Below, in pieces: positions 2,498 through 46,343 of a DNA stretch of 64,000 nucleotides. Source of the stretch: Elusimicrobia bacterium GWC2_64_44 (GTDB lineage Bacteria > Elusimicrobiota > Elusimicrobia > Elusimicrobiales > UBA9959); contig MGUG01000048.1 in the NCBI GenBank assembly GCA_001799845.1, positions 1-64,000 on the forward strand, in the 5' to 3' direction. A model generated the notes under the pieces. It made no database searches, had not been told where the DNA came from, and saw only the letters and a program-made list of their open reading frames with translations. Position 1 is the first letter of the stretch. Each line of letters starts with the position of its first letter. Position numbers and translations under genes: made by a program.

Positions 2498-3545
<1,048 letters not shown>

Positions 3546-3571
<26 letters not shown>

Positions 3572-20025: not shown

Positions 20026-23000
20026 ATGCGTTCATTCACAAAACTGGCGTTAGCTGCGGTTCTGGCTGTTTTCTCGGCGGGTGCCGCCATCGCGGCAACC
20101 ACCGCGCTCACAGTCCACGTGGAGGACCCCTCCGGAGTTGGCCTGCCAGGCGTAAAAGTCGCCGCCATACAGTGGGGCATGAACGGACCTTCCACCTACA
20201 CCCTTCTCGGCCTGACCGACGCCTCCGGAGACAAAGTCTTCAACCTTGAACAGCAGATGGGCTACAGCATCTACGTGACCTCCCACGGTTACTCGCCCAC
20301 CATCGCCGAGCAGTTCAACGACCCGGAATACAACCCCAATCGGAATTTCTGGCCCTGGGACGCTACTCCGCTTTCCTCCACTTTTACGCTGACCCCCGGG
20401 CTGACCGGGATCGGCAAGATAACCCAGGCTTTCACCAACGCCACCCCCAGCAAGGTGCTGATGGGCGGCATACATAACATGCTAGCGCAGATGCCCGGCC
20501 CTTCTGGCATGGTCTTCACCAGCATTGGCGGCGCCGGCGTCCTGGAAATAGAGAACGTTCCCTTCTCCGCGGCCAATACCTATAATATAGGCCTCTACGA
20601 TCCCACCCTGAACCGCGGCATCGGCCGCAACGTGATGAGCGACCTGGGAGACGGCAGCGCCGAATATCCCGGCGTGCCGTTGCTTAACTATCCCGCCCTC
20701 GATTTCAACCAGTCTATCCCGCCCTCGCGCGTGGAGACCAATACCCAGCCCGGAGGCTCCGGCGGCGGTTCCGCGGCCGGAGTCAGCGTGGAAGGCGTAG
20801 TTCACGAGTTGAACTATACCACCGCCACGGTTAGCCACACCGGCATCGGCATCAAGGCCTGCGTTTCCGGCAACAACTGGAACAGCTGGGCCAACACCGA
20901 CGAGAACGGCCGCTTCCAGCTCTACGGCCTCAACCCCGGCACCACCTATTATTTCAACGTCATGGGCGGCTGCTCCTGGAGCCAGAATGGCCAAAGCGCG
21001 TGTTATGGCCCTTACAGCAGCGCGCAATACAACGCGCAGGATATCTGCCTGCAGAACCCCGGTTCCATAAACACCAACGACCTGCTGTACGTCAGCTCGG
21101 ACGTGGCTTACCACAGCGTTAAACTGGCCCGCATGCCGCGCAGCAACGGCCAGATGCGCGTCTACGTGCGTTCTTCTTCCGGGTACCCTATTCCCAACGC
21201 GAACGTAAACGTAAGCCCCGATGGTTCGCCCTGGCCGCTGGCCGGGGACAGCTGCGCTAACCAGAACAACTACATGATGTTCTCGTCCACCAACTTCGCC
21301 TCGTCGCCCGGCTTCTCCAATGCCGGAGCCAATACCTCGGCCACCGGCTACGCCCTGCTCGACGGCCTGCCGAGCGGTACCTATAACGTTAACATCTGGA
21401 CGCCTTTCTCCAGCGGCAGCTCCAACGGCCCCACCGGTTTCAACGGCGGTCCCGACGGCACCTTCGGCAACTGGAACGCCATACCATGGCAGGCGATCCA
21501 CTGCACCGGTACCGGCGCTGACGACTACCGCGTAATGATAGACACCACTGCCGTCCCGACGATGAAGATCTTCGACAGCAGCGGTACGCTGCTGAACCTG
21601 TCTTCCATTACCTATATAGTGGACGCCGGGGGAGCTAACACCTCCGGAGAGATCCGCGGCACGGTCCGGTTCCCGGTAGAGGCCGACCTGATCGGCTCTC
21701 CCATAATGATAACCCTGTACCCGCAGTGCATGGAAGGTCCCTGCGGCTCAGGCAACTTCTCGGTCATAGCGGGCTCGGGCGCCGCCAGCTACGCGTATAC
21801 CATAAATGTAGCGAGCGGCACCGACTACTGGATGAACATCAACTCGCCCGGCTGGGGCCGCCTGCAGAACAACGGCAATAATATGATCAGCCTGCAGTCT
21901 ACCGGCACCGTTGTCCTGAACATGGACTTCGCCCCGGCGGGTACCGTCAGCGGCACGCTCTACAAGCCTGACGGCACCATCTTCACCCCCGCTGCCAACC
22001 AGTATGTCCACGTCGGCATGAACAGCGACCGCGGCGGCAGCGGCACCCAGCTGCAGAGCGACGGTTCTTTTGAACTGAAAGACGTGCTCTCCGGCGAGGC
22101 CCGCGCCTATATCAGCGCCGGCGGCATGGGAGAGTTCAATTACGCGCTGCCCACCCCGGTACCCACCGTCACGGTCACGGCCGGCAGCACTACCACGCTG
22201 AACATCAACCTGGTCAACGCGGTCTACGTGGGCGTGCAGCTTAGCACGGCCATGGTGCCCGACGCCTCAATTATCTCAAGCGACTATGACGCCATCATAG
22301 GCTTCCGGGCTATCCCCGTGCCCGCCGGCACGGTCCTGAAGGGCGAGACGCTCAAAGACATGCTCTTCGGCAAGGGCGATAACGATAACCGCCTCACCTT
22401 CGCCAACCCAACCGGCATGATGGACGGCGGCCCCTGCGGCAACAACTGGCCGGGCGGTTTCTGCGCCAAGAGCGTGCCGTCGCCCTCGGTCTACGACTTC
22501 TACCTGATGCGCTCCGGCGACTTCGGGAATATGTCTTCGTCCACGGCGGCCGCCGTGGCCGCCTACCCGCACTTCACGCTGCTGACCTCCAGCAAGAACG
22601 TGATAGTGGACAGCGACCACATAGTGGCCAGTTCCGTCCGGCCCGGCATGAACGGCGGCACGCTCGCCGACGGCATACCGGTGAACCTGACGCCCGCCAC
22701 GAACCTGTCCGGCCGCGGCAACTCCGTGCTGGCCGGCGACGTGAGCGCCGACAACTTCTTCCGCGAGGCGGACTATATCGCCCTCAACGGCGACCTGGAC
22801 GACTTCATGACGTACCTGCCTCTCGTGACCCTCTACGGTGCCGACGGCAGTTTCAAGGCCGCCGGCATGGTAGTGCCGCCGCCCGCGTTCATCCAGCAGT
22901 ACGACCAGCAGTTCAACATCGCCTATGCCCAGGGCTACCCGGCCTTCAAGGCGCTGCTGGACCTGTCACCCTCGTTCGGCTTCGAGATCCGCGGCCTGGC

Positions 23001-24912
23001 GCCCTCCACCTGCTTCACCGCGGTGGTGACCACGCCCAACTACCCGCCCTACCAGACCAGGGCCTGCACCGGAGTTAACAATTCCACTACCACCATCACG
23101 GTGGACCTTGACTCCGCCGTGGGCGCGGGCGCCACCGTGCAGGGCGTGGTGACCAGCACCGCCACCGGGCTCGTCCTGCCCAACGCTTCGGTGGAACTGC
23201 TCAGCGAATCCGACACCCGCTCGGCGGTGACCGACTCTTCCGGCGCCTACTCGTTCCCCGGTCTTGCGCCGGGCACGGTGAAGGTGCGCGCTTCCATAGA
23301 CGGCTACGCCTACGGCGAAGCCGATCAGGACCTGGTGGGGAGCAACTCCTACACCCGGAACTTCGCGCTGTTCCCGGCCGGCGGCTCCATCACCGGCACG
23401 GTCTACTCGCAGAAACTGCCTTACTCCAAGGTGCAGGCTGGAGCGCAGATCGTCGCCTACAACGACACCTACAACGGCACGCATCCCGACTCGCCCCTGC
23501 CGCTGATCAGGACCAAGACCGGTTCCGACGGCACCTACCGCATCAACGGGCTCATCCCCGGGGACGTCTATAAAGTGTTCCTCAAGGTGCAGGGCAAGTA
23601 CACGCTGACCGTCTCTACCCCGGCGACTTCCGGGATCGTGGCGGACGTGGACTTTACCATGCTGCCCAAGCCCCTCGACATCGAGGTCTTCGCCAAGAAG
23701 ACGGAGACCGACTTCGAGTTCACTATACTGAACCCGCAGGACTTCAAGAGCGGCTGGGTCGGCTGGAGCGCCTCGCCGTTCAACGGGGCCTCCGCCTCCA
23801 CCGTCACCCTGACCAACCTCTCAAGCGGCGAGATGATAGGCAAGATACCGCTGGGCTCGCTGACTTCCGGCGTGACTTACGTGCTGTATGGCGCGGCCAA
23901 GTCCTACTCCGGCAGGCAGGTCGTCAAGGAACTGCTGTTCGGCAGCGACTACAAGGGCAACGCCAAGCAGCAGATCGACGAGGCCATCCTGGGCGACGAC
24001 TCCGACGACGGCTTTGGCCGCAAGAACAACGAGGTCCCGCTGGACCGCAGCGGCGACGACCCGTCTGGCATAGTGTTCCCGCCCGGCGCCGTACTCGCCT
24101 CCACGGGATCCGTTCCCACCTGCTCGTTCAAGGGCGAGGACAAGGACTCCGCGTCGGCGGCCGCCAAGGTGGCCGCTCTCGGAGCGGACTCCTTCGCCGG
24201 CGACCTGTATACCATAGAGCTGGCGAGCGTTACCCACAACGACAACAAGTCCATAGAGATCACCCTGGCTTACGACAAGAGCACGGCCGACCTCGACGAC
24301 CTCTCGGTGGCGCGCTACAACGACAGCACCGGGAAATGGGAGCAGCTGTCCGGCGTGGCCACGGTCAACCCGCTGAAGGGCACCGTCAAGGTCAAGCTGC
24401 GCTCGCTGGCTTCGGTCCTGTCGGTCAGGCCCGGCGCCTCCAGGTTCTCCGCTAACCGCTTCGACGGCAAGCAGTACCGCGTGTCCGCGGCCGGGTCCAG
24501 CAGCACCTCCGGCACCTTCGCCGTGGTGCGGCCTTCGATCGCCGGCAACGCCTACGCGGGGACCAAGCTGAAGGTGTTCAATTACCCGAACCCCTTCAAC
24601 CTCAAGACCAAGACGGTCAATAACAGCCAGGGCGCGGCCCTCAGCGGCAACACCGAGGGCACCGTGATCCACGTGGAAGTGCCCGCCGGCAACGGCGGCG
24701 ACGGCCACGTGCGCATCTACACGCTCGCCGGCGAGCTGGTCAACGACCTGAGGACCAACTTCACCGCCGGCGCGCATAACTACGTGCTCTGGGGCGGCAA
24801 CAACAAGGCCGGCCAGCCCGTGGCCAACGGCGTCTATTACGGCGTGGTAGAACTGGCGGGCAAGGCGCCCGACCGCGAGGACGCGACCTTCAAGATGGTC
24901 GTGATAAAATAG
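20026..24912 (+). CDS. Cargo1: 1628-aa secreted multi-domain protein with sorting-type C-terminal domain
   Basis: A large exported surface protein of unknown function. The start at 20026 follows GGAGG and gives a signal peptide (residues 1-23, ending AIAA); an ATG at 19972 would disrupt it. Carboxypeptidase-regulatory-like beta-sandwich repeats are seen at about 25-95, 257-320, 1039-1110 and beyond (pattern VTDSSGAYSFPGLAPGTVKVRA). The middle is Gly/Ser/Asn-rich. From about residue 746 to the end it is homologous to the last ~870 residues of the 4568-aa protein at 31618. The last ~115 residues hold NYPNPFN, then VRIYTLAGELV, GGNNKAGQPVANGVYY and FKMVVIK. This pattern resembles FlgD-Ig or type IX secretion sorting domains. 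PorV1 follows after 26 bases. Confidence 0.85.
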   Translation: MRSFTKLALAAVLAVFSAGAAIAATTALTVHVEDPSGVGLPGVKVAAIQWGMNGPSTYTLLGLTDASGDKVFNLEQQMGYSIYVTSHGYSPTIAEQFNDPEYNPNRNFWPWDATPLSSTFTLTPGLTGIGKITQAFTNATPSKVLMGGIHNMLAQMPGPSGMVFTSIGGAGVLEIENVPFSAANTYNIGLYDPTLNRGIGRNVMSDLGDGSAEYPGVPLLNYPALDFNQSIPPSRVETNTQPGGSGGGSAAGVSVEGVVHELNYTTATVSHTGIGIKACVSGNNWNSWANTDENGRFQLYGLNPGTTYYFNVMGGCSWSQNGQSACYGPYSSAQYNAQDICLQNPGSINTNDLLYVSSDVAYHSVKLARMPRSNGQMRVYVRSSSGYPIPNANVNVSPDGSPWPLAGDSCANQNNYMMFSSTNFASSPGFSNAGANTSATGYALLDGLPSGTYNVNIWTPFSSGSSNGPTGFNGGPDGTFGNWNAIPWQAIHCTGTGADDYRVMIDTTAVPTMKIFDSSGTLLNLSSITYIVDAGGANTSGEIRGTVRFPVEADLIGSPIMITLYPQCMEGPCGSGNFSVIAGSGAASYAYTINVASGTDYWMNINSPGWGRLQNNGNNMISLQSTGTVVLNMDFAPAGTVSGTLYKPDGTIFTPAANQYVHVGMNSDRGGSGTQLQSDGSFELKDVLSGEARAYISAGGMGEFNYALPTPVPTVTVTAGSTTTLNINLVNAVYVGVQLSTAMVPDASIISSDYDAIIGFRAIPVPAGTVLKGETLKDMLFGKGDNDNRLTFANPTGMMDGGPCGNNWPGGFCAKSVPSPSVYDFYLMRSGDFGNMSSSTAAAVAAYPHFTLLTSSKNVIVDSDHIVASSVRPGMNGGTLADGIPVNLTPATNLSGRGNSVLAGDVSADNFFREADYIALNGDLDDFMTYLPLVTLYGADGSFKAAGMVVPPPAFIQQYDQQFNIAYAQGYPAFKALLDLSPSFGFEIRGLAPSTCFTAVVTTPNYPPYQTRACTGVNNSTTTITVDLDSAVGAGATVQGVVTSTATGLVLPNASVELLSESDTRSAVTDSSGAYSFPGLAPGTVKVRASIDGYAYGEADQDLVGSNSYTRNFALFPAGGSITGTVYSQKLPYSKVQAGAQIVAYNDTYNGTHPDSPLPLIRTKTGSDGTYRINGLIPGDVYKVFLKVQGKYTLTVSTPATSGIVADVDFTMLPKPLDIEVFAKKTETDFEFTILNPQDFKSGWVGWSASPFNGASASTVTLTNLSSGEMIGKIPLGSLTSGVTYVLYGAAKSYSGRQVVKELLFGSDYKGNAKQQIDEAILGDDSDDGFGRKNNEVPLDRSGDDPSGIVFPPGAVLASTGSVPTCSFKGEDKDSASAAAKVAALGADSFAGDLYTIELASVTHNDNKSIEITLAYDKSTADLDDLSVARYNDSTGKWEQLSGVATVNPLKGTVKVKLRSLASVLSVRPGASRFSANRFDGKQYRVSAAGSSSTSGTFAVVRPSIAGNAYAGTKLKVFNYPNPFNLKTKTVNNSQGAALSGNTEGTVIHVEVPAGNGGDGHVRIYTLAGELVNDLRTNFTAGAHNYVLWGGNNKAGQPVANGVYYGVVELAGKAPDREDATFKMVVIK

Positions 24913-24938
24913 GCCCGGGTTAAGACTGAGGAGAGACT

Positions 24939-25844
24939 ATGAAACATAAAATATTCCTTTCAGCGGTTTTAATGCTGGCGGCGGCCTCCGCTTACGCCGC
25001 CGGCCCCGGCACCACGGGCGCCAGCTTCCTTAAGGTGGGAGTCGGCGCCAGGGAGCTCGCCATGGGTTCGGCCGCCAGCGTCCTCACCGAGGGCGCCGGC
25101 GCGGCCAACTGGAACCCGGCCAAACTCGCCGGGCTCAAGGGCAAGCACCTGAGCGCCAGCTACAACATGCTGTTCATCGACGAGTCCCAGGGCTACCTGG
25201 GCTTCGCCACGCAGCTTAAGGACGACATGGGCGTGCTGGGCGGCGGCATGAACTACCTGACCGTCGGCGACATCGAGCGGCGCGCCGGGGACACCGAGAA
25301 CCCGGATTCCCTGTTCGACAGCAATAACATGGCGCTGGCTTTCTCCTACGCGCGGGCCGAGGTGCGGCCCGGGCTCGCGCTGGGCGCCAGCCTTAAGTAC
25401 ATCAGCCAGGACCTGGACACCCAGACCGACAAGGCCGTGGCGGTGGACCTGGGTTCGACTTACCAGCTTAACGACACCTACACCGCGGCCTTCGTGGTGC
25501 AGAACCTGGGCGGCAAGGTGGGCCCTGACAACCTGCCGCTGCTCATCAAGGGCGGCGTGGCCCGCAGTTTCCTGGACGGCAAGCTGGCCGCCGCGGCGGA
25601 CGTGGACTGGCTGGCCTACGACGAGCGCTTCTACCTGGACCTGGGCGCGGAATACCTGCTCGGCAAGGGCCTCGCCTTCAGGGCCGGCTACCAGCTGGGC
25701 CGCTCGCAGGACGAGCTCGGCGGCCTGACCGGCCTCGGGGCCGGCCTGGGGCTCAAGTTCGACCGCTTCACCCTGGACTACGCCTATGTGCCCTTCGGCG
25801 ACCTGGGCGACACTCACCGTATGACTTTGGGGTTCACCTTCTGA
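24939..25844 (+). CDS. PorV1: PorV/PorQ-family (UPF0164-like) outer-membrane protein
   Basis: 301 residues with a signal peptide (residues 1-20, ending AYA), then the family start GPGTTGASFLKVGVGARELAMGSA and NWNPAKLAGL. The rest is a FadL-like beta barrel ending in Phe. The C-terminal DYAYVPFGDLGDTHRMTLGF is the family hallmark. In type IX secretion PorV carries folded cargo with C-terminal sorting domains from the translocon to the surface. Placement directly behind cargo1 suggests it serves that protein. The paralogue at 45414 sits in the same position behind the second giant protein. Confidence 0.88.
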   Translation: MKHKIFLSAVLMLAAASAYAAGPGTTGASFLKVGVGARELAMGSAASVLTEGAGAANWNPAKLAGLKGKHLSASYNMLFIDESQGYLGFATQLKDDMGVLGGGMNYLTVGDIERRAGDTENPDSLFDSNNMALAFSYARAEVRPGLALGASLKYISQDLDTQTDKAVAVDLGSTYQLNDTYTAAFVVQNLGGKVGPDNLPLLIKGGVARSFLDGKLAAAADVDWLAYDERFYLDLGAEYLLGKGLAFRAGYQLGRSQDELGGLTGLGAGLGLKFDRFTLDYAYVPFGDLGDTHRMTLGFTF

Positions 25845-25863
25845 CGCTGCACTGGAGAACATC

Positions 25864-27087
25864 TTGAAAAAACTTATACTAGCAGCAGTGCTTTTAGCGC
25901 CGGCCCACGCCGGCGCTAAAGGTTTCGAGCTAATGGGAAAGCTGGACGTATTCGGCGGCCAGTACTTCTTTGAGGACCAGTCGGGGGCCTTTAACGGCTA
26001 CGGCGTCCTGGACGCCCAGCTGGCCAAAAGCCTGTCCTCCAGCAAGGGCTATTTCATCAGCCTGCGTTCCGTGTATACCGGCTTCAAGCAGGTCAACGAG
26101 CTCTCCGGCGGCGGCACGCTGTTCCAGCAGAGCATGGACCACTCGCTCGGCTACAAGTACATAAAGCGGTACGAGGGCGGCTGGTCGTTAAAGCCCCGGG
26201 CCGGAGTAAAGACGCAGTTCTTCCGGGAGACTAAAGACGAGAAATGGGGCGAGGGTCTCTACGACTTCACCCGCTACGAGGCGGGCCTGACGCTGGAGCG
26301 CAAAACGCGCTGGAGCCTCTCCTCCCCGTGGACCTGGCAGCTCTCCTGGGACGCCTATTACACGCGCTATACGCGTTTCAAGACCCTGGCCAGCAAGTAT
26401 GGCGCGGAGCTGGCCTCCCCGAACCCGGGCACCCGCACGCTCGACACGCTGACCAACCAGCTCTCCTATTCCAGCGAACTGGACCTGCCTAACTTCGTCC
26501 GGGCGGACTTTTTCGCCTCCCTGTCCATGATCGGTTACTCGGACCAGAAGGTCATCAACTCGGAAGGCCGCTACCTGCCAGATATGCGCTCGGACTACTA
26601 CCAGTCAGTGCACGCCGGCCTGTCCAAGCGCTATAACGACTTCGGCTTGCTGGGCGGCGTCCGGCCGGTGCTCGGCATGGGCCTGGGCCTGGGCAATACG
26701 TTCTCCAACCAGAACCACCTGGACACCGACCCGGCCAGGCTGAAGTATATCCGCGGCTTCTACGACTATGTAGAGGGCCGCGTAACGCCCAGCGCGCAGT
26801 TCACCTTTATAGAGTCGGGCCTGGTGGCCCGCCTGTCCTATGAGTACGCTGCGCGCAATTACTCGCAGCGCCTGGCCCAGAGGGCGGACGGTACCTATAC
26901 CTCCAGAAAACTGACGCAGCGCTCCGGCAGCTTTACGGCCGAACTCAGCTATCCCCTGTTCAGGTCCGTGGATATCAAGGCGCAGGGCAACTGGGCCGAT
27001 TCCGGCTCCAATAACGACTACGAGCAGGTTTACCGCTACACCTATAAGAGCTCCATGTATTTTGTGGGCGCGGAGTGGAGGTTCTAG
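25864..27087 (+). CDS. Barrel1: putative outer-membrane beta-barrel protein
   Basis: 407 residues starting with TTG, about seven bases after GGAGA. The signal peptide is MKKLILAAVLLAPAHAGA. The mature part has alternating aromatic strands and ends VGAEWRF, with the terminal Phe typical of BAM substrates. I do not recognise a named family. It is a paralogue of the protein at 30328: both have a GG-Y start strand, an LxGGG turn, DE(K/D)WG(E/D)GL(Y/F)D, and the same last strand (YRYTYKSSMYFVGAEW against FRYNYRASTYLLGLEW). It lies 19 bases after PorV1 and 2 bases before FecR1. A role as pore, anchor or assembly partner is inference. Confidence 0.75.
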   Translation: MKKLILAAVLLAPAHAGAKGFELMGKLDVFGGQYFFEDQSGAFNGYGVLDAQLAKSLSSSKGYFISLRSVYTGFKQVNELSGGGTLFQQSMDHSLGYKYIKRYEGGWSLKPRAGVKTQFFRETKDEKWGEGLYDFTRYEAGLTLERKTRWSLSSPWTWQLSWDAYYTRYTRFKTLASKYGAELASPNPGTRTLDTLTNQLSYSSELDLPNFVRADFFASLSMIGYSDQKVINSEGRYLPDMRSDYYQSVHAGLSKRYNDFGLLGGVRPVLGMGLGLGNTFSNQNHLDTDPARLKYIRGFYDYVEGRVTPSAQFTFIESGLVARLSYEYAARNYSQRLAQRADGTYTSRKLTQRSGSFTAELSYPLFRSVDIKAQGNWADSGSNNDYEQVYRYTYKSSMYFVGAEWRF

Positions 27088-27089
27088 CC

Positions 27090-28712: not shown

Positions 28713-28729
28713 AAGCGGCTAAACTAAAC

Positions 28730-28743
28730 GTTACCTCTGTTAC
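28730..28743 (+). promoter_or_regulatory. GTTAC-N4-GTTAC direct repeat before the FecR2 gene
   Basis: GTTAC at 28730 and 28739, the same spacing as at 19877-19890 ahead of cargo1. A further GTTAC lies at 28766 in the terminator arm. No good promoter pair is obvious, although a perfect TATAAT occurs at 28783. Confidence 0.35.
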
Positions 28744-28766
28744 AATTGTCCTAAGTCAACTGGCCG

Positions 28767-28808
28767 TTACCCTCCAATGTATTATAATTGGAGGGTAATG
28801 CTTTTTTT
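28767..28808 (+). terminator. Intrinsic terminator after FecR1, with TATAAT in its loop
   Basis: A perfect 12-bp stem (TTACCCTCCAAT / ATTGGAGGGTAA) with an eight-base loop is followed by TG, C and seven T (28802-28808). It separates the two halves of the exported-protein cluster. TATAAT at 28783-28788 spans the loop and the start of the right arm, so a promoter could start inside the terminator. Confidence 0.85.
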
Positions 28809-28864
28809 GGGGTAAGCATTCGTCAATTAATCGGGTAGTTCTATCGGTTTCTCAAGGAGTTCGT

Positions 28865-30310: not shown

Positions 30311-30327
30311 CCGGACCCACTTGAACT

Positions 30328-31548: not shown

Positions 31549-31617
31549 AGACAGCGCGGTCCGTGTAATAGTCAGAGAAACTAATTTTAGCGTCGGTATT
31601 TCAGCCGGAGATAACTT

Positions 31618-37600: not shown

Positions 37601-40600
37601 CCTTCTACGTCCAGTACAGCGCCGACCCGGCGCCCCTCTGGGACCGCGCCGGCGCGCAGCTCTCCTTTAACCCGGGAGCCAAGCTGCCGGGCGAGATACA
37701 GAGTTTCCGCGTCGGCGGCCTGACCACGCTGCGCTACCCCGACCAGGCGGTGGGGGAGAACCGCGGCCTGCTGTACCAGTTCAAGGTCTGGATAGCCAGC
37801 GCCGGCCTCACCACCGAGCTGCCCCCGGCGCAGAGCTACGCCCGTACGCCGCAGGCTTACGACAATACCCGCTATTTCGGCCGCGAGCGCCTCTCCTACA
37901 TGAGCGGCGTCAGCATGCCGCAGAACGCGCTGACGGTAGACGGCTCCTACGTTTACCACGCCTTCTCCGGCCGCGCTGACGGCTCCGCCAACCTGGGCTT
38001 CGGCCTGCGCAAGTATAACGCCGACCAGTACCTGGAGTGGACCAAGTTCTTCAACCACCGCCTCAACAGGTCCTACCAGGTCTCCGGAGTTACCCGGGAC
38101 GATTCCGGCAACTTCTACCTCTTCGGCTCCCAGTACCCCGTGGCCGAGGTCATCACCGGGCCCGAAGACTATATCCCCGGCAAGGACGCCTGGCTGGCCA
38201 AGCTGGACCCGAACGGGGACCTGCTCTGGTCCTACGCGGCCGACATCTCTGGCCTGGGCCTGATGGATTCGTTCAGCGACGCCGTCCTGGAGGGCGGCTA
38301 CCTCTACGCGGTGGGCGTGGCTTCCACCTCCTCCACCGGCCTCGACGCCTTCATGCGCAAGTTCGACCTCAGCCCCGCCAATGGCCCGGCCGTGGTCTGG
38401 ACCTCGGCTCTGCTCAACGGCAGCGCTTCCGAAGACGACTACGCTTACGGCGTCGCCGTAGGCACCGGCGCGGTCTACATGGCCGGCACGCTGAAGAACT
38501 CCACCAAAGACATGTTCATCCGCGCCCTCGGCAAAGCCGGCGGCGCCCCCGTAGGAGAGCTCATAACCAACGACTCCGCCTACCCCGATGAAGGCTACGA
38601 CCTTGCTATCACCACCACCACCCCGCCCTACCTGTACCTGGGCGGCGCGTTGGGCAAGCTGGAGATAGAGGGCAGCGCCTACGAGAAGAGCGACGCCGCG
38701 CTGCTGCAGTTCACGCTCGACGGCGGGCTGGCGCGCACCATTACCTATGACGGCAAGGACGTCATGGACCACGACGCCGTCTACGCCGTAAAGGCGGACG
38801 CCTCCGGCGTCATTGTCGCCGGCTACGAAGCCAACACCCTCGAGGGCAGGAACACTATCGTCGCCAAGTACGACCACGACCCGGCGGGCAGCGTGCCCGT
38901 CTGGAGCCGCAGCCTGAACCTGGTGGACGACGGCGACCCGTATACCGCCAACTACGGAGACGACGAGGCCTACGGCCTGGCCCAGGGGCCCGACGGCAGG
39001 ATCTACATGCCCGTCTCGCTGTGGGTCAACCACCCCGGCTTCTATTACTTCCCCGAGCCCAACTTCAACCTGGCGGCCTATTCCGGCCATGTGCCCGGCT
39101 CGGTCCGGCTCGAGTGGATGAACAGGGAATACCTGCCGACGGGGTCTTTCTTCCGGGTTCAGTATTCCACCTTCTCGGACGCGGCCTGGAGCCCCGATTC
39201 CGCGCAGCTCACCCTCCCCGTGGATTACGACATCTACGAGGGCATGAGCGTGGACCGCCCGGTCTTCGGCCTGGATACCGGCCGCGACCAGTACGGCAAT
39301 TCCATTGGCCCGGTGTATTACTTCAAGGTCTGGGCCGTGCCGGGCGAGGGCGGACAGCTTATTGCCGCCTCACCGCGCCCCAGGGCCGGCGCCCCCGGAG
39401 TGCCTGTGCTGGTTTCCGCCGTTCCCGCTTCGGCCCGCGCCGGAGAAGGGTGGGTCTTCGAGAACGTGGCCATGTACCCCAACGACGCCAGGCTGTTCTC
39501 CATGGGCGCCCCCGTGTATAGCTACGGCGACTACGAGAAGGAGTTCCCGGGCGTGGCCCGCGACTCCTCCGGCAACCTCTACACGCTGGCCAACATGAAC
39601 TGGAACGGCAGCGACGGGTTCGCGGTGAAGAAATTCAATTCCGCCATGCAGCCGCTCTGGACCCGGTTCTACGCGCCCGGCGAGTGGCACCAGGCCAAGG
39701 CCAACAGGATGGCCGCCGACTCCGAGGGCAATCTCTATATAACCGGCTACGAGCGCGCTATGGCCTCCGAGACCGGCCGGGATATCTTCGTGCTGAAGCT
39801 GGGCGCTTCCGGCGCCGCTTGGAAGACCCTCCTGGACTTCGAGGGTTCGGACGACACCGGCTATGGCGTGGCGCTGGACGCGTCCGGCAATGTCTTCGTG
39901 GCCGGCACCGTCTACACCTCCGCCCAGTACAAGAACGCATACGTGGCCAAACTGGGTCCCGCCGGCGTACTGCTGACGACCGCCGCCTATAACGGCAGCG
40001 CCGGCGGCGACGACGAGGCCTACGGCGTGGCCGTGCGCGACGGCGAGGTGTTCCTGGCGGGCTCTTCCAATGAGACCGGCCAGGGTTTCCAGTTCCTGAT
40101 GGCCCGCTTCGCCGCCGGGGACCTGGCCGCACGCGGCGCGGCCGCCATCGGCGACGACCCCTCCGTGGCCTACGAAGAAGCGGCCTTCGACGTGGCCGTC
40201 GGCAGCGCCGGCGTGGTCTACTTTGCCGGGCAGATCTACGAGGAAGGCAGTTATTCCCTGGACGCGGCCGTGGTAAAGAGCTCCGCGGACCTCACCGCCC
40301 TCGATTGGGCGGAGCCGATGCGCTTCAACAGCCAGGCCAACGGCGCCGACTCGGCCCGCGCGATAGCGCTGGACGCCGGCGGCGCGGTCTACGCGGCCGG
40401 CTACACCGAACGCTACGACATCAACCAGGACCGTAACCTGTGGCTGCGCAAGTACGCCCCCGACGGCGCGGAGCTGTGGACGCAGGAGTTCCACGCCAAC
40501 GCCGTGCAGGGCGGCGACCCCTACGCCATGGGCCCCAGTTCTGACGAGGGCTTCAGCCTCGCGGTGGGCACCATGGGCTTCGTCTCGGTGGGCGGCAAGT

Positions 40601-43600
40601 ACGGCGGCTACTACGGCATGTACCGCTACCGCCAGACCAACCTGCTGGCAGTCAACCCGACGCTTACGGTCAACGTGGCCAGCGGTACCGCCTCCGTGCC
40701 CTTCGCGGACGTGCGGGTGGCGCTGATCCCGTTCTCCGCCACCGGCGGCATCGACGTCTCCGGCTCCACGATAGCGGTGACCGGCGCCTCCGGCGCGGTC
40801 TCCTTCCAGGTGCCGGCCGGCAAGCAGTACTTCATCGCGCTGGACAGGCAGGGCTTCAGCCCCGCCATGAGGGACCAGCTGATGGACCCGTACGGCAGCT
40901 ACTTCGTGCAGCTCAACGCCGACATGACGAAGAGCTACATCCTGTCGCCGCGCGCCGCGGCCGACGCCTATTATCCCCTGACGGTCAGAATCTCTTCCGC
41001 CGCCGCCCGGGACTTCGTGATGGCCGAGGTGTTCTTTACGGCCACCGGCGAAAAGGCGGCCTACGGCATAGCGCAGGTGCCCGCCGGGGTGACGGCCACC
41101 ACCATTACCGTGACCAACCTGCCGCCGGTCTCGGCGGCCGGGGCCTACACGCTGGGCGTGACCATACCCGGGCGCAGCCTGGCGCGCAGCATAGTGATGA
41201 ACGCCCTGTTCCCGCAGACCAGCTCCTACCTGGTCAGCATGTCCACCATGGCCGGCGCGGTGGCCACCACCGGCGGTTTCGAGGTGGGGGCTTCCACCAC
41301 GCCGCCCGTAGTAGAGGGCGTGGTGCGCAACTTCCGCACCTGGGCCCCCATAGAGCAGGTGCGCGTGCGCCTCTATAACCGCACCGAGCCTTGCAGCAGC
41401 GGCAACTGCGAGCACAATAACTACGAAACGCTGACCGACGTGAACGGCAAGTTCTCGTTCTACAACGTCGTCAGCACCGCCGGCGCGTACAACATCATGG
41501 GCCAGAAGGCCGGCTACAAGCGCGGCGGGGCGCCGCAGTTCAGCGTTATAGCCGGGAACCAGAACACCAGCTACCGCGAGTTCCAGCTGGAGGAAGCCAC
41601 GTACACGCTGCGCGGCTACCTGCGCTACCGCGACGTGCCGGTGCCCAACGCCGACGTGATGGTCTACGGAGATTACAACCCGTACGGCGGCGGTTCCGAC
41701 AGCTACCGCGGCGGCCGCGGTATGGACACCGACGCCAGGACCAAGACGGGCGCGGACGGCTCGTTCGTGTTCAGCACGGCCACGGCCAACGGCCTGCCGG
41801 ACGGCCAGCTTCGCATGCAGGCGGCCTTCTTCGGCAACTGGATGGACCTCAACGAAGGCAACACCCAGAACTTCTCCAGCGTGGACGCCGACGACGTACG
41901 CATAGTCATCTCCAGCCAGGGGGCTACCGGCGTCGCCAACTCGAACTGCACTAAGGGCCGCGTCTGGAAGCTGCGCGCCGACAACGGCGCCTGCCAGAGC
42001 CTGGCCACCGGGGACGTTAACTTCAACATCATGCCCCCGTCGCAGAACGACTACGCTACGCTCTCGGGCTCCATCACCTTCGTGACCTCGTACACGGTCA
42101 CGGCGGCCAACCCGCTGGTCATCAGCACGGCGCTGCCGATCACGGTGATGGCCATGGAGGAGTGCACCGACTGCAAGACCCGCTCGATGGGCTTCGCGGT
42201 GATCAGCGGCACCTATACGGTGAACCGCGCCACGTACAGCATCACGCTGTCCACCGGCCTGGCCTACTATACGCGCGTCACCTCCAACGAGTGGGGCGAG
42301 GTCAGCTCTTTCGACGACCGCGCCGACTTCCGCTCCACCATGACGACCTCCGTCCGGATGAACTTCACCGTGACCAGGGCCGGCAAGCTGACGGGCGTGG
42401 TCAAGATGCCCGATGGTTCCAACTACAAGCCGACCTTCAACGTCAGCAGCGACGACCCCGGGTACCACAGGATAGACATCAACGTGGCCGGGCAGAACGT
42501 CAGCGTCAACGAGGGCTGGAACGTGGACGAGTACGGCGCGTTCGAATTCCCGAACCTGGCGCCGGGTCTCTACTCCATCAATATCCGGCCCGAGGGCCTG
42601 GGTTTCCGCTGGGCGGCCCCTGCTCTGACCGACGTGTCGGTGGTGGCGGGCAAGACCACTCAGGTGACCCTGAAGCTGGAGGACGGCCTCTACGTGCAGC
42701 CGCAGATCATCGGCCTGCCCGAGATCTCCACTCCCACCTGGGCTTACATGATGGTCCCGGTCCCTTCCGGCACCGAGATGAACCAGAAGAAGATAACCGA
42801 GATGTTCTTCGGCAAGGACGTCTTCTCGTTCGAATACAGCACTGGCACCCAGGTCTGGCAGAAGCGCGTCATGCAGGTGGGGCAGTACGACTTCTACCTG
42901 GTGCTCGGCTCCCGCTATAACCCGGGCGGGGGGTCAGAAGATATAGAGAGCTACGACCACTTCGGCAACTTCATCGGCAAGGTGAAGGGCTTCAACGTGC
43001 AGCGCAACGACGCCACTCCGAACCTGGGCACTGAGTCCCAGCCCATCCCGGTCAATGTGCTCGGTTCGCTCGGGCAGGAAACGTTCGAGGGCGTCATAGA
43101 CGGCGACCGCCTTTACACCGACTCCGACCTGCGGCGCATCTTCTCCAACATAGAGGAGTTGTTCGAGTCTATCCCGGCCGTAATGGTCTACGACGCGGCC
43201 GGCGACCTGCGCGGCTATACCGCCGGCATGCCGCGCCAGGCGGACTTCCCGCTGTTCTGGAGCAATATCGGCGCCCAGGACCTGCCGGGGACCCGCGCCT
43301 ACCTGGGTTCGCACGACAACCGGTTCATGGTCGCCGGGCTGCCGCCGGGGCGCTACACCGTGGTGTTCAACAACCCCAACTACCCGCCCGTCGCCAAGGA
43401 GGTGGACGTCCCGCTGGCCTCGTCGTATAACGGCAGCTACGCGTTCGACTTCGACGAGCAGCGCGTCCGCGTGGGCACGATCTACGGCACGGTGCGCAGC
43501 ACCGCCACCGGCGACGCGCTCGGCAGCGCTACGGTCTACCTGAAGCACAAGACCGTGGAGAAGTTCGCGGAGACGGCCGCCGACGGCTCGTTCACGTTCG

Positions 43601-45324
43601 ACAATATGCCGGCCGGCATCTACCGGCTGGAGGTGGCGCGCGAAGGGTTCGTGAAGGCCGGCGAGAAGACCTCGCTGGCGGGCAACGACTCCGTGCGGCT
43701 GGACCTCTACCTGACGCCTTCGCATACCAATATGACCGGCAAGGTGTTCATGAGCAAGTTCCCGTCGCCGGTCACCCGGTCGGGCGTCAAGATCGTGGCG
43801 TACGACGAGACCTTCAACGTCGAGCACCCGACAGAGTACCTGCCCAAGATAGAGGCTACCACCAACGACGCCGGCGAATACGAGCTGGCGGGCGTGGTGC
43901 CGGGGCATAACTACAAAGTCACCGCCTTCCACGGCGGCAAGCAGACCTACACGCTGGACGTGGGGAGCGAGACCGTTACGGAGGGCGTGACCTACCTGCC
44001 CGACATCGTGATGCGCGACGTGCCGCCGCAGATAGTGGTGAAGGTGCGCCGCTCGGCCGACACGCTGAACAAGGCCGACGTGACCATCAAGTCACCCAAG
44101 GCGCTGGTCACGACCCCGGTCTGCAAGGTGAACCCCGGCGACGTCTACGTGGCGACCTCGGCGGTCAGCCTCGCGCTGGTGCCCGGCACCAATAATACGT
44201 ACGCCGGGCAGTTCACCATCTCGCAGCACCAGCCCTTATACAACGTCTACGTCGCGGCCGGAGACGGCTCGAGCAGGATGGAGAAATCCGTCACGTTCAG
44301 CCCGAACAACTCGGCCAAGACGGAACAGTACATCCAGGACGAAGCCATCCAGGGCGGCGAGATACAGATGGACAAGGAGTCCGAGGAGTATTCCGGCATC
44401 GAACTCGATACCGGCGGCCTCTCCTACGACCAGAGCGGCGGCGCGAGCGCCTCCTCCTTCAGGCCTTCGGCCGACGGCGGCAGCCTCGTGGGCGGCTTCT
44501 TTAGCTCGCTCCCGTCGGTGCGCACGGTAAAGACGGCCAAGGGCAACCTGAGCCTCACGCAGGCCATCACCGACCTGATGGCGTCCGAGATCTACAACAT
44601 GAGCCTCGATAACGCCTCGGCCAACAAGCCCTTCACGCTGACCCTGAAGTACGACAAGGACAAGGCGGCGGACGGCGCCAACCTGCGCATCTACCAGTAC
44701 AACGAGACTACCGGCGTCTGGGAAGAGGTCCCCGGCAACTACACCACCGACCCGATGCTGGGAGTGCTCTCCGTAGGAGTGGCCAGCCTGAGCGACGCCA
44801 GCGCGGGCGCCAGCGCGGCGGCCACGCCTTACGGCCGCAAGCGCCTGGGCATGAGCGCCGTGGTCAACGGCCGCTACGTGCCCTCGGCGGCGGGTTCGTC
44901 GCAGAGCGGGCGCTTCGCGGTGTTCACCGCGCGGCCTTCGCCGAGCGTCGCCTACGCGGGCGCGGACTACGAGGTAGCCAACCTGCCTAACCCCTTCAGC
45001 CTGAAGGACAAGACGGTGACCAACCTCGAGGGCACGGCGGCCTTCGGCGGCGCGACCACCTATGTGACGCGCGGCACGCTGCTTAAGTACCACCTGCCCC
45101 CGGGCAAGTCCGGGAGCGTCAAGTTCGTGGTCTACAACCTGGCCGGCGAGAAGGTGCGCACCGTCAGCGACGGCGTGCGCGCCGGCGGCGGCATGTATTA
45201 CTCCGAGTGGGACGGCAAGAACGACAACAACCAGGACGTGGCGTCCGGAGTCTACTTCCTGCTGACCTACGTGGACGGCGAGAAGCTGGGCGCCAAGGCC
45301 CATAAACTGGCGGTAATAAAGTAA
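31618..45324 (+). CDS. Cargo2: 4568-aa giant secreted beta-propeller protein with sorting-type C-terminal domain
   Basis: One uninterrupted frame of 13.7 kb. The signal peptide is at residues 1-26 (AAQAGA). Residues about 30-390 and 505-860 are propeller-like, with SBBP-type blades (GIAVDGTDVYMAG). Residues 862-1260 have APDGSGGAYMVF-type repeats. Then come fibronectin-III-like segments at about 1465-1570, 1975-2080 and 2480-2590 (SWTYPQAIPSGQYMIKYSTDP pattern), each followed by another propeller of ~380 residues, giving a ~500-residue period. Residues 3010-4150 are carboxypeptidase-regulatory-like sandwiches. The last ~870 residues match cargo1, ending with LPNPFSLK and DVASGVYFLL. Function unknown; surface adhesion or polymer binding is a guess. 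PorV2 follows. Confidence 0.88.
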   Translation: MRKIKNIFINLLGAAVLTAFAAQAGAVGFTGDFLLPEGANYDGGNMDGGWATAYYANSVYVVGVSSPTGGFLVRYSTAGVMQASGALPGVELTGVAVNAAGVYAVGTSYSPVRMVIAKFNNSTLALVSSKTWDTGLTPASGADVALCAAGNAYVIGTNLSLKGVAFGMYDPNLATLSESGFETAGDDAGTGIAVDGTDVYMAGHSLIASTTYFLGLKYSLSDYLSVMYASTSLTGIYLDELHELGGKIAVNPVTHQVYAALNQSHNDMRLARFNPTWNYVDAQVFNGSAYAAASDVVIDSTGNVLVTGSYNTGAGNDYPVLLKYSPSMVFISSAARPQTYGYESASVSLNPVSGDAFGTGVYFSDGTGNEPGWDMRTVRFSASAAPALRQISGTVTYAGTYDPAAVLTVRVSTSADFRGTPFFTSIPSPLASQPYTISNVPAGTYYMALTASINWVVADSTDPWGVHGQLGTPTPIDVTAGDAAGVDVAMIDGNSIPNPWSMEPLPPATVDCLGTFGLGGECRINGGATFATGIATDIFDSRYLLLTNLTDSAIVKFDYLGDIVSSVTVKYSVFNDIKLNAFNDDFYVAAQGPVSGVRVYRYNSSLALVSSVTVAGYQGARQLDFDAQGAVYTVSTKDNGGDYDIRVVKFSEALVPQDDWSDVSPGADQGYGIAVDGTDVFVTGIQRPDAFPQVAVIKLDGTSVLSKTGSAWADSAPFTFPEGVGFNNIRVAADSTGVYAAFNADLLASTATAVYRFTRADMALGYSSATMAGAGNFGDMKIKEGYLYLAAEAVNQARVTKYSAASFSPVASKTTNLLPYGLAPGALAFGVVGTASEVFLGGVIPYGMGDIAAGAAELALIDGPVPVIEQPQDYTEGTNNLLMAPDGSGGAYMVFDSTVGPNELRMVYVRRVDASNHTLWAYDVTQTAVTGINELYALPDGSGGLYAGWFTGGHAYAQHYDANGTVLWDVNGVRVSSGPVDGGEFVANPQGGFFAVFGYIQTDVNTSLTAQSVRSDGNCNWPAYGPCSAAAGTPIPAVDFAGEGAGAAGTDGSFMFFWGGDTDENGYLQIAGSKLDASGALVWTPTVKSLYASGTAQLGYDLEAAADGAGGAYVVWSSSESGARALYAQRYNSSGVAESPWMSPLQLTGAVLPADYYLKLSLTSDDEGFSVLYSSNTMTGASEVRVVRGQSGLSQLAAGFSLNGKLLGSTSDSEQSLVYDGTAYHIAWNQWETGLPAGNYHRVAYQKMAKDGTFTHDPYYSVGLASDCVKIDVSTDGADGALVGWMEKTGGGIETVTPRLLDIPLAVGPVSVYLSTRSAAPAVYLTGQPGPALLLDVRTVAGQATVTNLRVHVNPAGAYTDVAAVSLYADNGEDGIWSAGHDLISSAAVSGAYVDLAFPAGTMVNTTPGPVFLALTPALAAAGNSVNLALDDASALTTTGEMQSQGFYPVVSPLVSVTSQSGVTDLAVSPGQNLASVPLSWTYPQAIPSGQYMIKYSTDPADLAGPEAPAIVTPLTSVTAGSGDSILVSDLPEVAATVGGVTRVFPYHFALWLYNGTSTSPVSNLVQNQYFPLSSSQAGEAVLAYSDQLQIDPADNVRSAHLGMDRYTAFTFYGTPDNLLTLRTPAGAFYYKPAVGALEFKDLAVDPSGFSYLLAMLDTNALVLKIAPDGEVLWVRDLGAESAKAITFGGGAPYVATEVTGAGGDLDVKLRKLYVGSGGADNGNPYIYDTSEEYGCPSNDRVNSLEFTSDPQRAYLYLGGAVGEAYCLGNYFPRQGRVAKIADTGVERSTSTAYVAGAWPLRHNVQPYNPSEVTRVRVIGDGDLLVAGYERPQYYGRYGADVWLNKYSASASQLFPATVYYSETQYDVDEVPTGLDYDGFGNIYVSGYADKSYLSQGYDLLLLKFGPGGQLSQNRVYDSGSPQDGWGSDVFVSSDNYANVYGPFTSQNYYGVYSLPPGGGGTAPNAQFFAAMEGPYTGSADLMWNYTSALPEGATFYVQYSADPAPLWDRAGAQLSFNPGAKLPGEIQSFRVGGLTTLRYPDQAVGENRGLLYQFKVWIASAGLTTELPPAQSYARTPQAYDNTRYFGRERLSYMSGVSMPQNALTVDGSYVYHAFSGRADGSANLGFGLRKYNADQYLEWTKFFNHRLNRSYQVSGVTRDDSGNFYLFGSQYPVAEVITGPEDYIPGKDAWLAKLDPNGDLLWSYAADISGLGLMDSFSDAVLEGGYLYAVGVASTSSTGLDAFMRKFDLSPANGPAVVWTSALLNGSASEDDYAYGVAVGTGAVYMAGTLKNSTKDMFIRALGKAGGAPVGELITNDSAYPDEGYDLAITTTTPPYLYLGGALGKLEIEGSAYEKSDAALLQFTLDGGLARTITYDGKDVMDHDAVYAVKADASGVIVAGYEANTLEGRNTIVAKYDHDPAGSVPVWSRSLNLVDDGDPYTANYGDDEAYGLAQGPDGRIYMPVSLWVNHPGFYYFPEPNFNLAAYSGHVPGSVRLEWMNREYLPTGSFFRVQYSTFSDAAWSPDSAQLTLPVDYDIYEGMSVDRPVFGLDTGRDQYGNSIGPVYYFKVWAVPGEGGQLIAASPRPRAGAPGVPVLVSAVPASARAGEGWVFENVAMYPNDARLFSMGAPVYSYGDYEKEFPGVARDSSGNLYTLANMNWNGSDGFAVKKFNSAMQPLWTRFYAPGEWHQAKANRMAADSEGNLYITGYERAMASETGRDIFVLKLGASGAAWKTLLDFEGSDDTGYGVALDASGNVFVAGTVYTSAQYKNAYVAKLGPAGVLLTTAAYNGSAGGDDEAYGVAVRDGEVFLAGSSNETGQGFQFLMARFAAGDLAARGAAAIGDDPSVAYEEAAFDVAVGSAGVVYFAGQIYEEGSYSLDAAVVKSSADLTALDWAEPMRFNSQANGADSARAIALDAGGAVYAAGYTERYDINQDRNLWLRKYAPDGAELWTQEFHANAVQGGDPYAMGPSSDEGFSLAVGTMGFVSVGGKYGGYYGMYRYRQTNLLAVNPTLTVNVASGTASVPFADVRVALIPFSATGGIDVSGSTIAVTGASGAVSFQVPAGKQYFIALDRQGFSPAMRDQLMDPYGSYFVQLNADMTKSYILSPRAAADAYYPLTVRISSAAARDFVMAEVFFTATGEKAAYGIAQVPAGVTATTITVTNLPPVSAAGAYTLGVTIPGRSLARSIVMNALFPQTSSYLVSMSTMAGAVATTGGFEVGASTTPPVVEGVVRNFRTWAPIEQVRVRLYNRTEPCSSGNCEHNNYETLTDVNGKFSFYNVVSTAGAYNIMGQKAGYKRGGAPQFSVIAGNQNTSYREFQLEEATYTLRGYLRYRDVPVPNADVMVYGDYNPYGGGSDSYRGGRGMDTDARTKTGADGSFVFSTATANGLPDGQLRMQAAFFGNWMDLNEGNTQNFSSVDADDVRIVISSQGATGVANSNCTKGRVWKLRADNGACQSLATGDVNFNIMPPSQNDYATLSGSITFVTSYTVTAANPLVISTALPITVMAMEECTDCKTRSMGFAVISGTYTVNRATYSITLSTGLAYYTRVTSNEWGEVSSFDDRADFRSTMTTSVRMNFTVTRAGKLTGVVKMPDGSNYKPTFNVSSDDPGYHRIDINVAGQNVSVNEGWNVDEYGAFEFPNLAPGLYSINIRPEGLGFRWAAPALTDVSVVAGKTTQVTLKLEDGLYVQPQIIGLPEISTPTWAYMMVPVPSGTEMNQKKITEMFFGKDVFSFEYSTGTQVWQKRVMQVGQYDFYLVLGSRYNPGGGSEDIESYDHFGNFIGKVKGFNVQRNDATPNLGTESQPIPVNVLGSLGQETFEGVIDGDRLYTDSDLRRIFSNIEELFESIPAVMVYDAAGDLRGYTAGMPRQADFPLFWSNIGAQDLPGTRAYLGSHDNRFMVAGLPPGRYTVVFNNPNYPPVAKEVDVPLASSYNGSYAFDFDEQRVRVGTIYGTVRSTATGDALGSATVYLKHKTVEKFAETAADGSFTFDNMPAGIYRLEVAREGFVKAGEKTSLAGNDSVRLDLYLTPSHTNMTGKVFMSKFPSPVTRSGVKIVAYDETFNVEHPTEYLPKIEATTNDAGEYELAGVVPGHNYKVTAFHGGKQTYTLDVGSETVTEGVTYLPDIVMRDVPPQIVVKVRRSADTLNKADVTIKSPKALVTTPVCKVNPGDVYVATSAVSLALVPGTNNTYAGQFTISQHQPLYNVYVAAGDGSSRMEKSVTFSPNNSAKTEQYIQDEAIQGGEIQMDKESEEYSGIELDTGGLSYDQSGGASASSFRPSADGGSLVGGFFSSLPSVRTVKTAKGNLSLTQAITDLMASEIYNMSLDNASANKPFTLTLKYDKDKAADGANLRIYQYNETTGVWEEVPGNYTTDPMLGVLSVGVASLSDASAGASAAATPYGRKRLGMSAVVNGRYVPSAAGSSQSGRFAVFTARPSPSVAYAGADYEVANLPNPFSLKDKTVTNLEGTAAFGGATTYVTRGTLLKYHLPPGKSGSVKFVVYNLAGEKVRTVSDGVRAGGGMYYSEWDGKNDNNQDVASGVYFLLTYVDGEKLGAKAHKLAVIK

Positions 45325-45332
45325 AGGACGGA

Positions 45333-45361
45333 CCGGGCCATGGCCGCGCGCCATGGCCCGG
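45333..45361 (+). other. Strong hairpin between cargo2 and PorV2 genes
   Basis: A perfect 12-bp stem (CCGGGCCATGGC / GCCATGGCCCGG) with a five-base loop, nine bases after the cargo2 stop. No T-run follows directly, so it is more likely an mRNA-processing or stabilising hairpin, or a partial attenuator, than a full terminator. Confidence 0.6.
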
Positions 45362-45413
45362 GTAAACCCGGCGATTTAAGTCTTTTGCGGTCTGCGGTTA
45401 CAGAGGTATTCTT

Positions 45414-46343
45414 ATGAGAAAAGCCATTTTAACACTGCTGCTGTCGGCGCTCCCCGCGGCCGCCTTCGCCTCCGGCGCCGGCACCACGGCGGCGCCTTTC
45501 CTGAAGGCGGCCATGAGCCCGCGCGCGGTGGCGGTGGGCGGGGCGTTCAGCGCCCTGGCCGACGACTCCGGCGCGGTCTTCGTGAACCCGGCCGGCCTGG
45601 TGCAGTTCGACGAGCGGGAGGCGGCGCTGGACTTCAGCACCTACCTGCAGGACGCCAGGATGGGCAACCTCTCCTACGCGGGCAACGTCAGGGACAACCG
45701 TTTTGGGCTGGGCTTGACCTTCATGACCGTGGGGGGGATAGAGCGGCGCGGCCTGGCCGATACCGCCGGCCTGGTTCCGGAGGCCGGCACCTTCGGCGCC
45801 AGCGACATGGCCGTCACCCTGGCCTACGCCAAAAAAGACTTTTCCCCGGAGCTGCTCAGCGGCCTCGACGGCGGTTTCTCTGCCAAATTCATCCGCTCTT
45901 CCATCGACGACGAGAGCGCCCTCGCGCTGGCGGTGGACGCCGGCGCCATCTACCGCGCCACTCCCAAGATCAGGTTCTCGCTGGTGCTGCAGAACCTGGG
46001 CACCAAAATGAAGTTCGTGGAAGAGTCCGACCCGCTGCCCCTGGTGATCCGCACCGGCGGCTATTATGCGGTCTCGGAGCGCTTCAAGGTGGCCGGCGAA
46101 CTGGCCGGCTGGCTGCAGGACGAGAAATTCTATCCGTCCATCGGGGCCGAATACTGGTTCCGCGACGCGCTGGCGCTGCGCGGCGGCTACAAGTTCGGCT
46201 ACGACACCGCCAACCTGGGCGCCGAGGTGGGCCTCAGCCTCGGCTTCGGCGTGAAGGTGCAGGGCCTAGGCGTGGATTATGCCTTCCTGCCCTTCGGCGA
46301 CCTGGGCAGCATTCACCGCTTCGGGGTCTGGATGCAGTTCTGA
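45414..46343 (+). CDS. PorV2: PorV/PorQ-family (UPF0164-like) outer-membrane protein
   Basis: 309 residues, signal peptide ending AFAS, then GAGTTAAPFLKAAMSPRAVAVGGAFSAL and VNPAGLVQF, as in PorV1. The barrel ends with DYAFLPFGDLGSIHRFGVWMQF, which parallels the PorV1 C-terminus. It is the last gene of the exported cluster, 89 bases behind cargo2 with a hairpin between, and is followed by a strong terminator. By analogy with type IX secretion it would pair with cargo2. Confidence 0.88.
   Translation: MRKAILTLLLSALPAAAFASGAGTTAAPFLKAAMSPRAVAVGGAFSALADDSGAVFVNPAGLVQFDEREAALDFSTYLQDARMGNLSYAGNVRDNRFGLGLTFMTVGGIERRGLADTAGLVPEAGTFGASDMAVTLAYAKKDFSPELLSGLDGGFSAKFIRSSIDDESALALAVDAGAIYRATPKIRFSLVLQNLGTKMKFVEESDPLPLVIRTGGYYAVSERFKVAGELAGWLQDEKFYPSIGAEYWFRDALALRGGYKFGYDTANLGAEVGLSLGFGVKVQGLGVDYAFLPFGDLGSIHRFGVWMQF

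What the first reader, a model, noticed from the sequence alone, without database searches (positions are those of the whole stretch)
20026..46343. Two paralogous four-gene cassettes (cargo, PorV, barrel, FecR) side by side in permuted order
Sequence: the eight exported genes on the plus strand pair up as paralogues: cargo1/cargo2 (shared C-terminal ~870 aa), PorV1/PorV2, barrel1/barrel2 (whole length), FecR1/FecR2 (whole length). The order is cargo1-PorV1-barrel1-FecR1 | FecR2-barrel2-cargo2-PorV2. Inference: the four proteins form a functional unit, kept together through duplication and rearrangement, that puts very large proteins on the cell surface. I know of no described system with this four-part make-up.
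Basis: partly seen in the sequence, partly recalled or inferred. Interest (0 to 1): 0.87.

Follow-up and report, generated by a model that had tools for sequence, protein, structure and literature searches.

The report
Paired surface-protein export cassettes in Elusimicrobiota
Two neighbouring four-gene sets in an uncultured Elusimicrobiota bacterium are ancient duplicates of a unit found across the phylum; [quoted passage not shown]

Summary
Eight plus-strand genes (20026-46343) form two paralogous quartets, cargo1-PorV1-barrel1-FecR1 | FecR2-barrel2-cargo2-PorV2. All pairs are real homologues, and cargo1 matches cargo2's last ~1,540 aa, not only ~870. Barrel and FecR are adjacent in 59/59 family loci and in 32 of 35 assessable distant ones. 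The quartet recurs across Elusimicrobiota, usually as FecR-barrel-cargo-PorV. In all four gene trees cassette A is one clade and cassette B (apart from one probably mis-binned locus) is sister to the phylum-wide form. The cassette PorVs cluster together among the genome's ~22 PorV paralogues. The unit is really two gene pairs: cargo-PorV, which occurs alone elsewhere in the genome, and FecR-barrel, which is new. The genome, like 295 of 341 Elusimicrobiota, has a divergent SprA/Sov-like protein, so a type-IX-like route (Sec, SprA, PorV shuttle, surface) is the best explanation, with FecR-barrel as anchor or receiver (inferred). GldM, GldN and PorU were not found, but those searches lacked positive controls. 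By-product: cassette B's promoter is folded into cassette A's terminator in 8 of 9 tandem loci and 0 of 14 others.

The parts
20026..24912 (+). cargo1 (~1,628 aa): signal peptide, carboxypeptidase-regulatory-like Ig repeats, C-terminal FlgD-Ig-like sorting-type domain
24939..25844 (+). PorV1, PorV/PorQ-family outer-membrane protein (301 aa)
   Evidence: NF033709, 160.8 bits, cut-off 90
25864..27087 (+). barrel1 (407 aa), new outer-membrane beta-barrel family, cassette-A clade; C-terminal Phe
27090..28712 (+). FecR1: exported FecR-domain protein with family-specific tail; likely start ATG 27090 (the listed ORF starts at GTG 27075)
28765..28800 (+). intrinsic-terminator hairpin followed by a T run; ends cassette A and overlaps the promoter position of cassette B
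28865..30310 (+). FecR2 (481 aa), first gene of cassette B
30328..31548 (+). barrel2 (406 aa); AlphaFold2 model is a ~16-strand barrel
31618..45324 (+). cargo2 (4,568 aa): ~3,000-aa N-terminal extension with beta-propeller (SBBP) repeats, then a cargo1-like core (~3032-4568) with FlgD-Ig-like C-terminus
45414..46343 (+). PorV2 (309 aa), PorV/PorQ family
   Evidence: 173 bits

Best explanation
Each cassette is a dedicated surface-display unit of a type-IX-like export pathway in Elusimicrobiota. The giant cargo leaves the cytoplasm by Sec (signal peptide: seen in the sequence). Its C-terminal FlgD-Ig-like domain then takes it through the SprA/Sov-like outer-membrane translocon encoded elsewhere in the genome (homologue shown; use by this cargo inferred). 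The co-encoded PorV paralogue collects it as a cognate shuttle (family shown; role by homology). The FecR-barrel pair then forms the outer-membrane and periplasmic anchor or receiver that holds this particular cargo, much as PorE-PorP does for type B cargo in Bacteroidota (inferred from strict linkage and predicted location only). The two cassettes are ancient duplicates that travelled as whole units. Cassette B keeps the arrangement commonest across the phylum; cassette A is a family-restricted, rearranged copy closed off by its own terminator.
For: Linkage: barrel-FecR adjacent in 59/59 family loci. PorV and cargo sit in the same order in every family A or B locus that was long enough to show them. 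The quartet occurs across the phylum. Four concordant trees, and cassette PorVs form one cluster among the genome's PorV paralogues. Translocon: SprA-like protein in 295/341 genomes, one match in most and in this one, TIGR04189 E 1.5e-37 in this genome, PDB 6h3i SprA E 7e-35. Cargo tails: FlgD_ig, with weak matches to the PorU C-terminus and TIGR04183. Several other PorV genes directly follow a gene with such a tail. Cognate shuttle logic is established in F. johnsoniae (PMC12618676), and PorE-PorP anchoring in P. gingivalis (PMC9143113).
Against: No GldM (0/31 with PF12081; 0/295 with TIGR03517), GldN (0/101) or C25 sortase (own genome) was found. These searches had no true positive control, and the SprA case shows such models can miss divergent homologues. 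The cargo C-termini score below the T9SS cut-off. The barrel has no detected homology to PorP/SprF. A few FecR-barrel pairs (the D type) stand next to giant proteins with no PorV seen nearby. No physical interaction is shown.
Confidence: 0.5

Rival explanations
1. FecR-barrel is a sensory pair: the barrel senses a surface ligand or the state of the cargo, and periplasmic FecR relays the signal inward, as FecR proteins do in cell-surface signalling and as FecR/CHASE2 operons suggest.
For: The FecR domain models onto PupR and anti-sigma FecR domains. A CHASE2-type protein lies just upstream of FecR in L134, L136 and L138; the L138 protein is a CHASE2 cyclase. FecR/CHASE2 operons are known in Burkholderia (PMC5192318). 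NsrA in Sinorhizobium is an outer-membrane receptor acting with inner-membrane adenylate cyclases (PMC7529298).
Against: The FecR proteins here start with a signal peptide and no anti-sigma or transmembrane region was seen. No CHASE2-type gene was found by sequence search in the window family's loci. A receptor role does not by itself explain the strict linkage to cargo and PorV.
Confidence: 0.25
2. FecR-barrel is the export pore itself: the barrel exports the neighbouring giant protein, a two-partner-like route independent of SprA, and PorV is only a surface cofactor.
For: FecR-barrel nearly always lies next to a giant exported protein, including loci where no PorV was seen. The barrel is large (~16 strands).
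Against: The model resembles ordinary porins and receptors. The genome has an SprA-like translocon, and other cargo-PorV pairs in the genome lack the barrel.
Confidence: 0.15
3. The linkage is accidental: inherited neighbourhood with no shared function.
For: Closely related genomes share neighbourhoods anyway (general knowledge).
Against: The association spans classes of the phylum and survives changes of order (C-P-B-F, F-B-C-P, C-F-B-P) and an ancient whole-unit duplication.
Confidence: 0.04

Closest known systems
Type IX secretion system (SprA/Sov translocon, PorV shuttle, CTD cargo) of the Bacteroidetes-Chlorobi-Fibrobacteres group
   Same: SprA/Sov homologue in this genome, PorV/PorQ-family proteins, Sec signal peptides, C-terminal FlgD-Ig-like domains
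   Different: GldM, GldN and PorU not detected (no positive control); about 22 PorV paralogues for one SprA; C-terminal domains below the T9SS cut-off; phylum outside the published range (PMC12421860, PMC10202324)
PorP/SprF-type cognate shuttle-anchor next to type B cargo (SprB-SprF; PG1035-PorP-PorE)
   Same: Logic: an outer-membrane barrel encoded beside its own giant cargo, with a periplasmic partner
   Different: The barrel has no detected homology to PorP/SprF; the periplasmic partner is a FecR protein, not PorE; PorV is also present in the cassette
FecR-type cell-surface signalling and FecR/CHASE2 operons
   Same: The FecR domain fold
   Different: Signal-peptide-exported, long family-specific tail, no sigma or anti-sigma partner seen, no CHASE2-type gene found in this family's loci

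Membership tests
Type IX secretion system | SprA/Sov translocon | tested here: met
   G000:C44:97277-102481, TIGR04189 E 1.5e-37 (128.5 bits, below the 200-bit equivalog cut-off); PDB SprA 6h3i E 7e-35 with the family profile
Type IX secretion system | PorV/PorQ-family outer-membrane shuttle | tested here: met
   NF033709 160.8 and 173 bits against cut-off 90; about 22 family members in the genome
Type IX secretion system | C-terminal sorting domain on cargo | tested here: inconclusive
   FlgD_ig passes its cut-off in cargo2 only; TIGR04183 weak, 15-16 bits against 23
Type IX secretion system | PorL/PorM (GldL/GldM) motor | tested here: inconclusive
   GldM: 0/31 with PF12081 and 0/295 with TIGR03517, no positive control; GldL not searched
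Type IX secretion system | PorK/PorN ring | tested here: inconclusive
   GldN TIGR03523 0/101, no positive control; GldK not searched
Type IX secretion system | PorU C25 sortase | tested here: inconclusive
   PF01364 not found in own genome, no control rang
PorP/SprF shuttle-anchor barrels | Sequence homology of the barrel to PorP/SprF | tested here: not met
   No Pfam or NCBIfam hit at E 0.1; PDB fold matches are generic porins and receptors
FecR anti-sigma regulators | Cytoplasmic anti-sigma segment and transmembrane helix before the FecR domain | tested here: not met
   N-terminal signal peptide directly followed by the FecR domain; only the FecR domain matches 4m0n and 6ovk

The most novel reading that the evidence does not exclude
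Elusimicrobiota use a phylum-wide type-IX-like export route with one SprA serving a large set of dedicated PorV shuttles and no canonical PorLM motor, and FecR-barrel is a new outer-membrane module that receives and anchors particular giant surface proteins.
Probability: 0.35. Interest if true: 0.85.

Novelty: new variant of a known kind. Interest (0 to 1): 0.68.

Why it matters
The papers read here describe type IX secretion as confined to Bacteroidota or to the Bacteroidetes-Chlorobi-Fibrobacteres group (PMC10202324, PMC12421860). A near-universal SprA homologue in another phylum, with about 22 PorV paralogues in the window's genome, would change views of the system's origin and energy source. 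The FecR-barrel pair is a clear, testable candidate for a new cognate anchor. Having two cassettes side by side lets shuttle and anchor specificity be tested by swapping parts.

Tried and rejected
Cargo homology limited to the C-terminal ~870 aa: rejected. Accidental linkage: rejected. FecR as a classical anti-sigma factor: rejected on architecture. FecR-barrel fusions: long stop-to-stop frames (713-889 aa) looked like fusions, but in the ones inspected FecR is a separate upstream gene or the extra N-terminal sequence reads as out-of-frame DNA with no Pfam match. CHASE2 as a regular partner: only a few distant loci. PDB sequence searches with barrel and FecR profiles gave only chance-level matches. 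SprA first seemed absent from this genome with PF14349 and appeared only with a phylum-specific profile. One FecR-tail contig without a barrel (G052:C102) ends just after FecR, and another (G027:C69) stops about 0.5 kb past it.

Full report
What is there. The window is the first 64 kb of contig C48 (143.7 kb) of an Elusimicrobiota genome of 3.09 Mb in 60 contigs; the closest relatives among named records are Elusimicrobiales isolate STC_50 and Elusimicrobia GWD2_63_28. Between a cation-efflux gene (18784-19773) and 46343 lie eight plus-strand genes that form two paralogous quartets. Every pair is a genuine homologue. Cargo1 is homologous along nearly its whole mature length to the last ~1,540 residues of cargo2. 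Gaps within each quartet are short: 26, 19 and -13 bases in A, and 17, 69 and 89 in B, against 152 between the quartets (using the 27075 start for FecR1).

What the parts are. PorV1 and PorV2 pass the PorV/PorQ cut-off. The cargos have a signal-like N-terminus, carboxypeptidase-regulatory-like Ig repeats and a C-terminal FlgD-Ig-like domain; cargo2 adds beta-propeller repeats. The cargo tails also match, weakly, the C-terminus of the T9SS sortase PorU and TIGR04183. The barrels match no family; the model is a confident outer-membrane-type barrel of about 16 strands resembling generic porins and receptors. FecR2's model has a FecR domain matching solved FecR and anti-sigma regulator domains, and a folded tail with no PDB match at E<0.001.

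Barrel and FecR-tail profiles were searched in 101 related genomes: 54 have the barrel and 51 the FecR tail. In the retrieved family loci all 59 barrels have FecR next door. Cassette A (cargo-PorV-barrel-FecR) appears in 17 loci, and cassette B (FecR-barrel-cargo-PorV) in 34, of which 25 show all four genes; the rest are cut by contig ends, lie beyond the stretch fetched, or had no PorV assigned. A and B stand side by side in nine genomes. Of 41 distant barrels, 32 have FecR adjacent, 6 lie at a contig edge and 3 lack it next door; in two of those three FecR lies about 5-6 kb upstream with a giant protein between. Orders differ (C-F-B-P in L140 and L163) but the membership stays. The barrel family occurs in 148 of 341 genomes and 74 of 100 genera of the phylum.

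History. In the barrel, FecR, PorV and cargo trees, clade A is monophyletic with maximal support, and clade B is sister to the phylum-wide quartets; in the barrel and FecR trees one locus from a 'Clostridia' MAG (L129) falls inside B and is probably mis-binned. Within the genome's own PorV set (25 matches, about 22-23 genes) the cassette PorVs group together with their counterparts from other classes (support 89). So four genes share one history, which supports whole-unit duplication. Trees were quick searches, and the A clade sits on a long branch, so its exact attachment is unsure.

Two pairs, not four independent parts. Elsewhere in this genome several PorV genes directly follow a gene with an FlgD-Ig-like tail and have no FecR or barrel. 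FecR-barrel was found at three loci: A, B and a divergent FecR-barrel-PorV locus on C57. The cassette is therefore a general cargo-PorV pair plus a specific FecR-barrel pair.

The translocon. PF14349 gave weak hits in 46 of 341 Elusimicrobiota. The ~1,800-aa proteins behind them match TIGR04189 (Sov/SprA) at E 5e-33 to 3e-51. A phylum profile finds it in 295 of 341 genomes, including this one, where it matches TIGR04189 at 1.5e-37 and, as a family profile, solved SprA at 7e-35. No paper in the library was found that describes this: the papers that hold both Elusimicrobi and T9SS or type IX secretion were few, and the two that were opened, plus the reviews read, do not report it. GldM, GldN and C25 sortase were not found, but no control genome gave a true hit, so absence is not shown.

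Mechanism. Shown: homologies, linkage, shared history, signal-like N-termini, predicted barrel. Inferred from T9SS biology: cargo passes SprA and is collected by its own PorV, as specialised shuttles do in F. johnsoniae (PMC12618676). Inferred from linkage only: FecR-barrel anchors or receives the cargo, by analogy with PorE-PorP (PMC9143113). A sensory role for FecR-barrel is the main rival.

By-product. About 100 bases upstream of FecR2, many B cassettes carry a TTGAC-17/18-TATAAT-like promoter. In eight of nine genomes where A lies upstream, that promoter is embedded in a strong hairpin followed by a T run (-18 to -29 kcal/mol); in 14 B loci without A directly upstream it is not (best -11.6). 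In the window the hairpin is at 28765-28800, and the -35 element there is degenerate. The arms differ between genomes but still pair, which fits a terminator for A laid over the promoter of B. The loci are not independent, so the contrast is descriptive.

Noticed in passing
window 28700-28864 and the A|B junctions of L032/L033, L034/L035, L036, L038, L042, L044, L046: Cassette B's sigma-70-like promoter is folded into an intrinsic-terminator hairpin with T run in 8 of 9 genomes that have cassette A upstream, and in 0 of 14 B loci without A directly upstream. In the window itself the -35 element is degenerate.
   Followed up: partly
L188 (G000:C44:97277-102481, +): A SprA/Sov-like translocon protein (1,838-aa frame), present in 295 of 341 Elusimicrobiota genomes, mostly single-copy.
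   Followed up: partly
L031 (G000:C57:9850-17641, -): A third, divergent FecR-barrel-PorV locus; its PorV has a C-terminal extension and it is followed by a 621-aa protein with an 'NFQGRL' motif.
   Followed up: partly
L086, L087, L088, L089, L090: A separate clade of FecR-barrel pairs with long barrel frames, next to 'NFQGRL' proteins or giant proteins, with no PorV seen nearby.
   Followed up: partly
L129, L138, L163, L166: The family also appears in MAGs labelled Clostridia, Sumerlaeota and Caldiserica; L129 falls inside the Elusimicrobiota B clade and may be mis-binned.
   Followed up: no
L138:6381-8330, L136:6423-8381, L134:2812-4791: CHASE2-type proteins directly upstream of FecR in a few distant loci; the L138 one carries CHASE2 and a cyclase domain.
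   Followed up: partly
window 58058-60424: A 788-aa plus-strand protein without a Pfam match, next to a type II/IV secretion ATPase gene (60527-62296).
   Followed up: no
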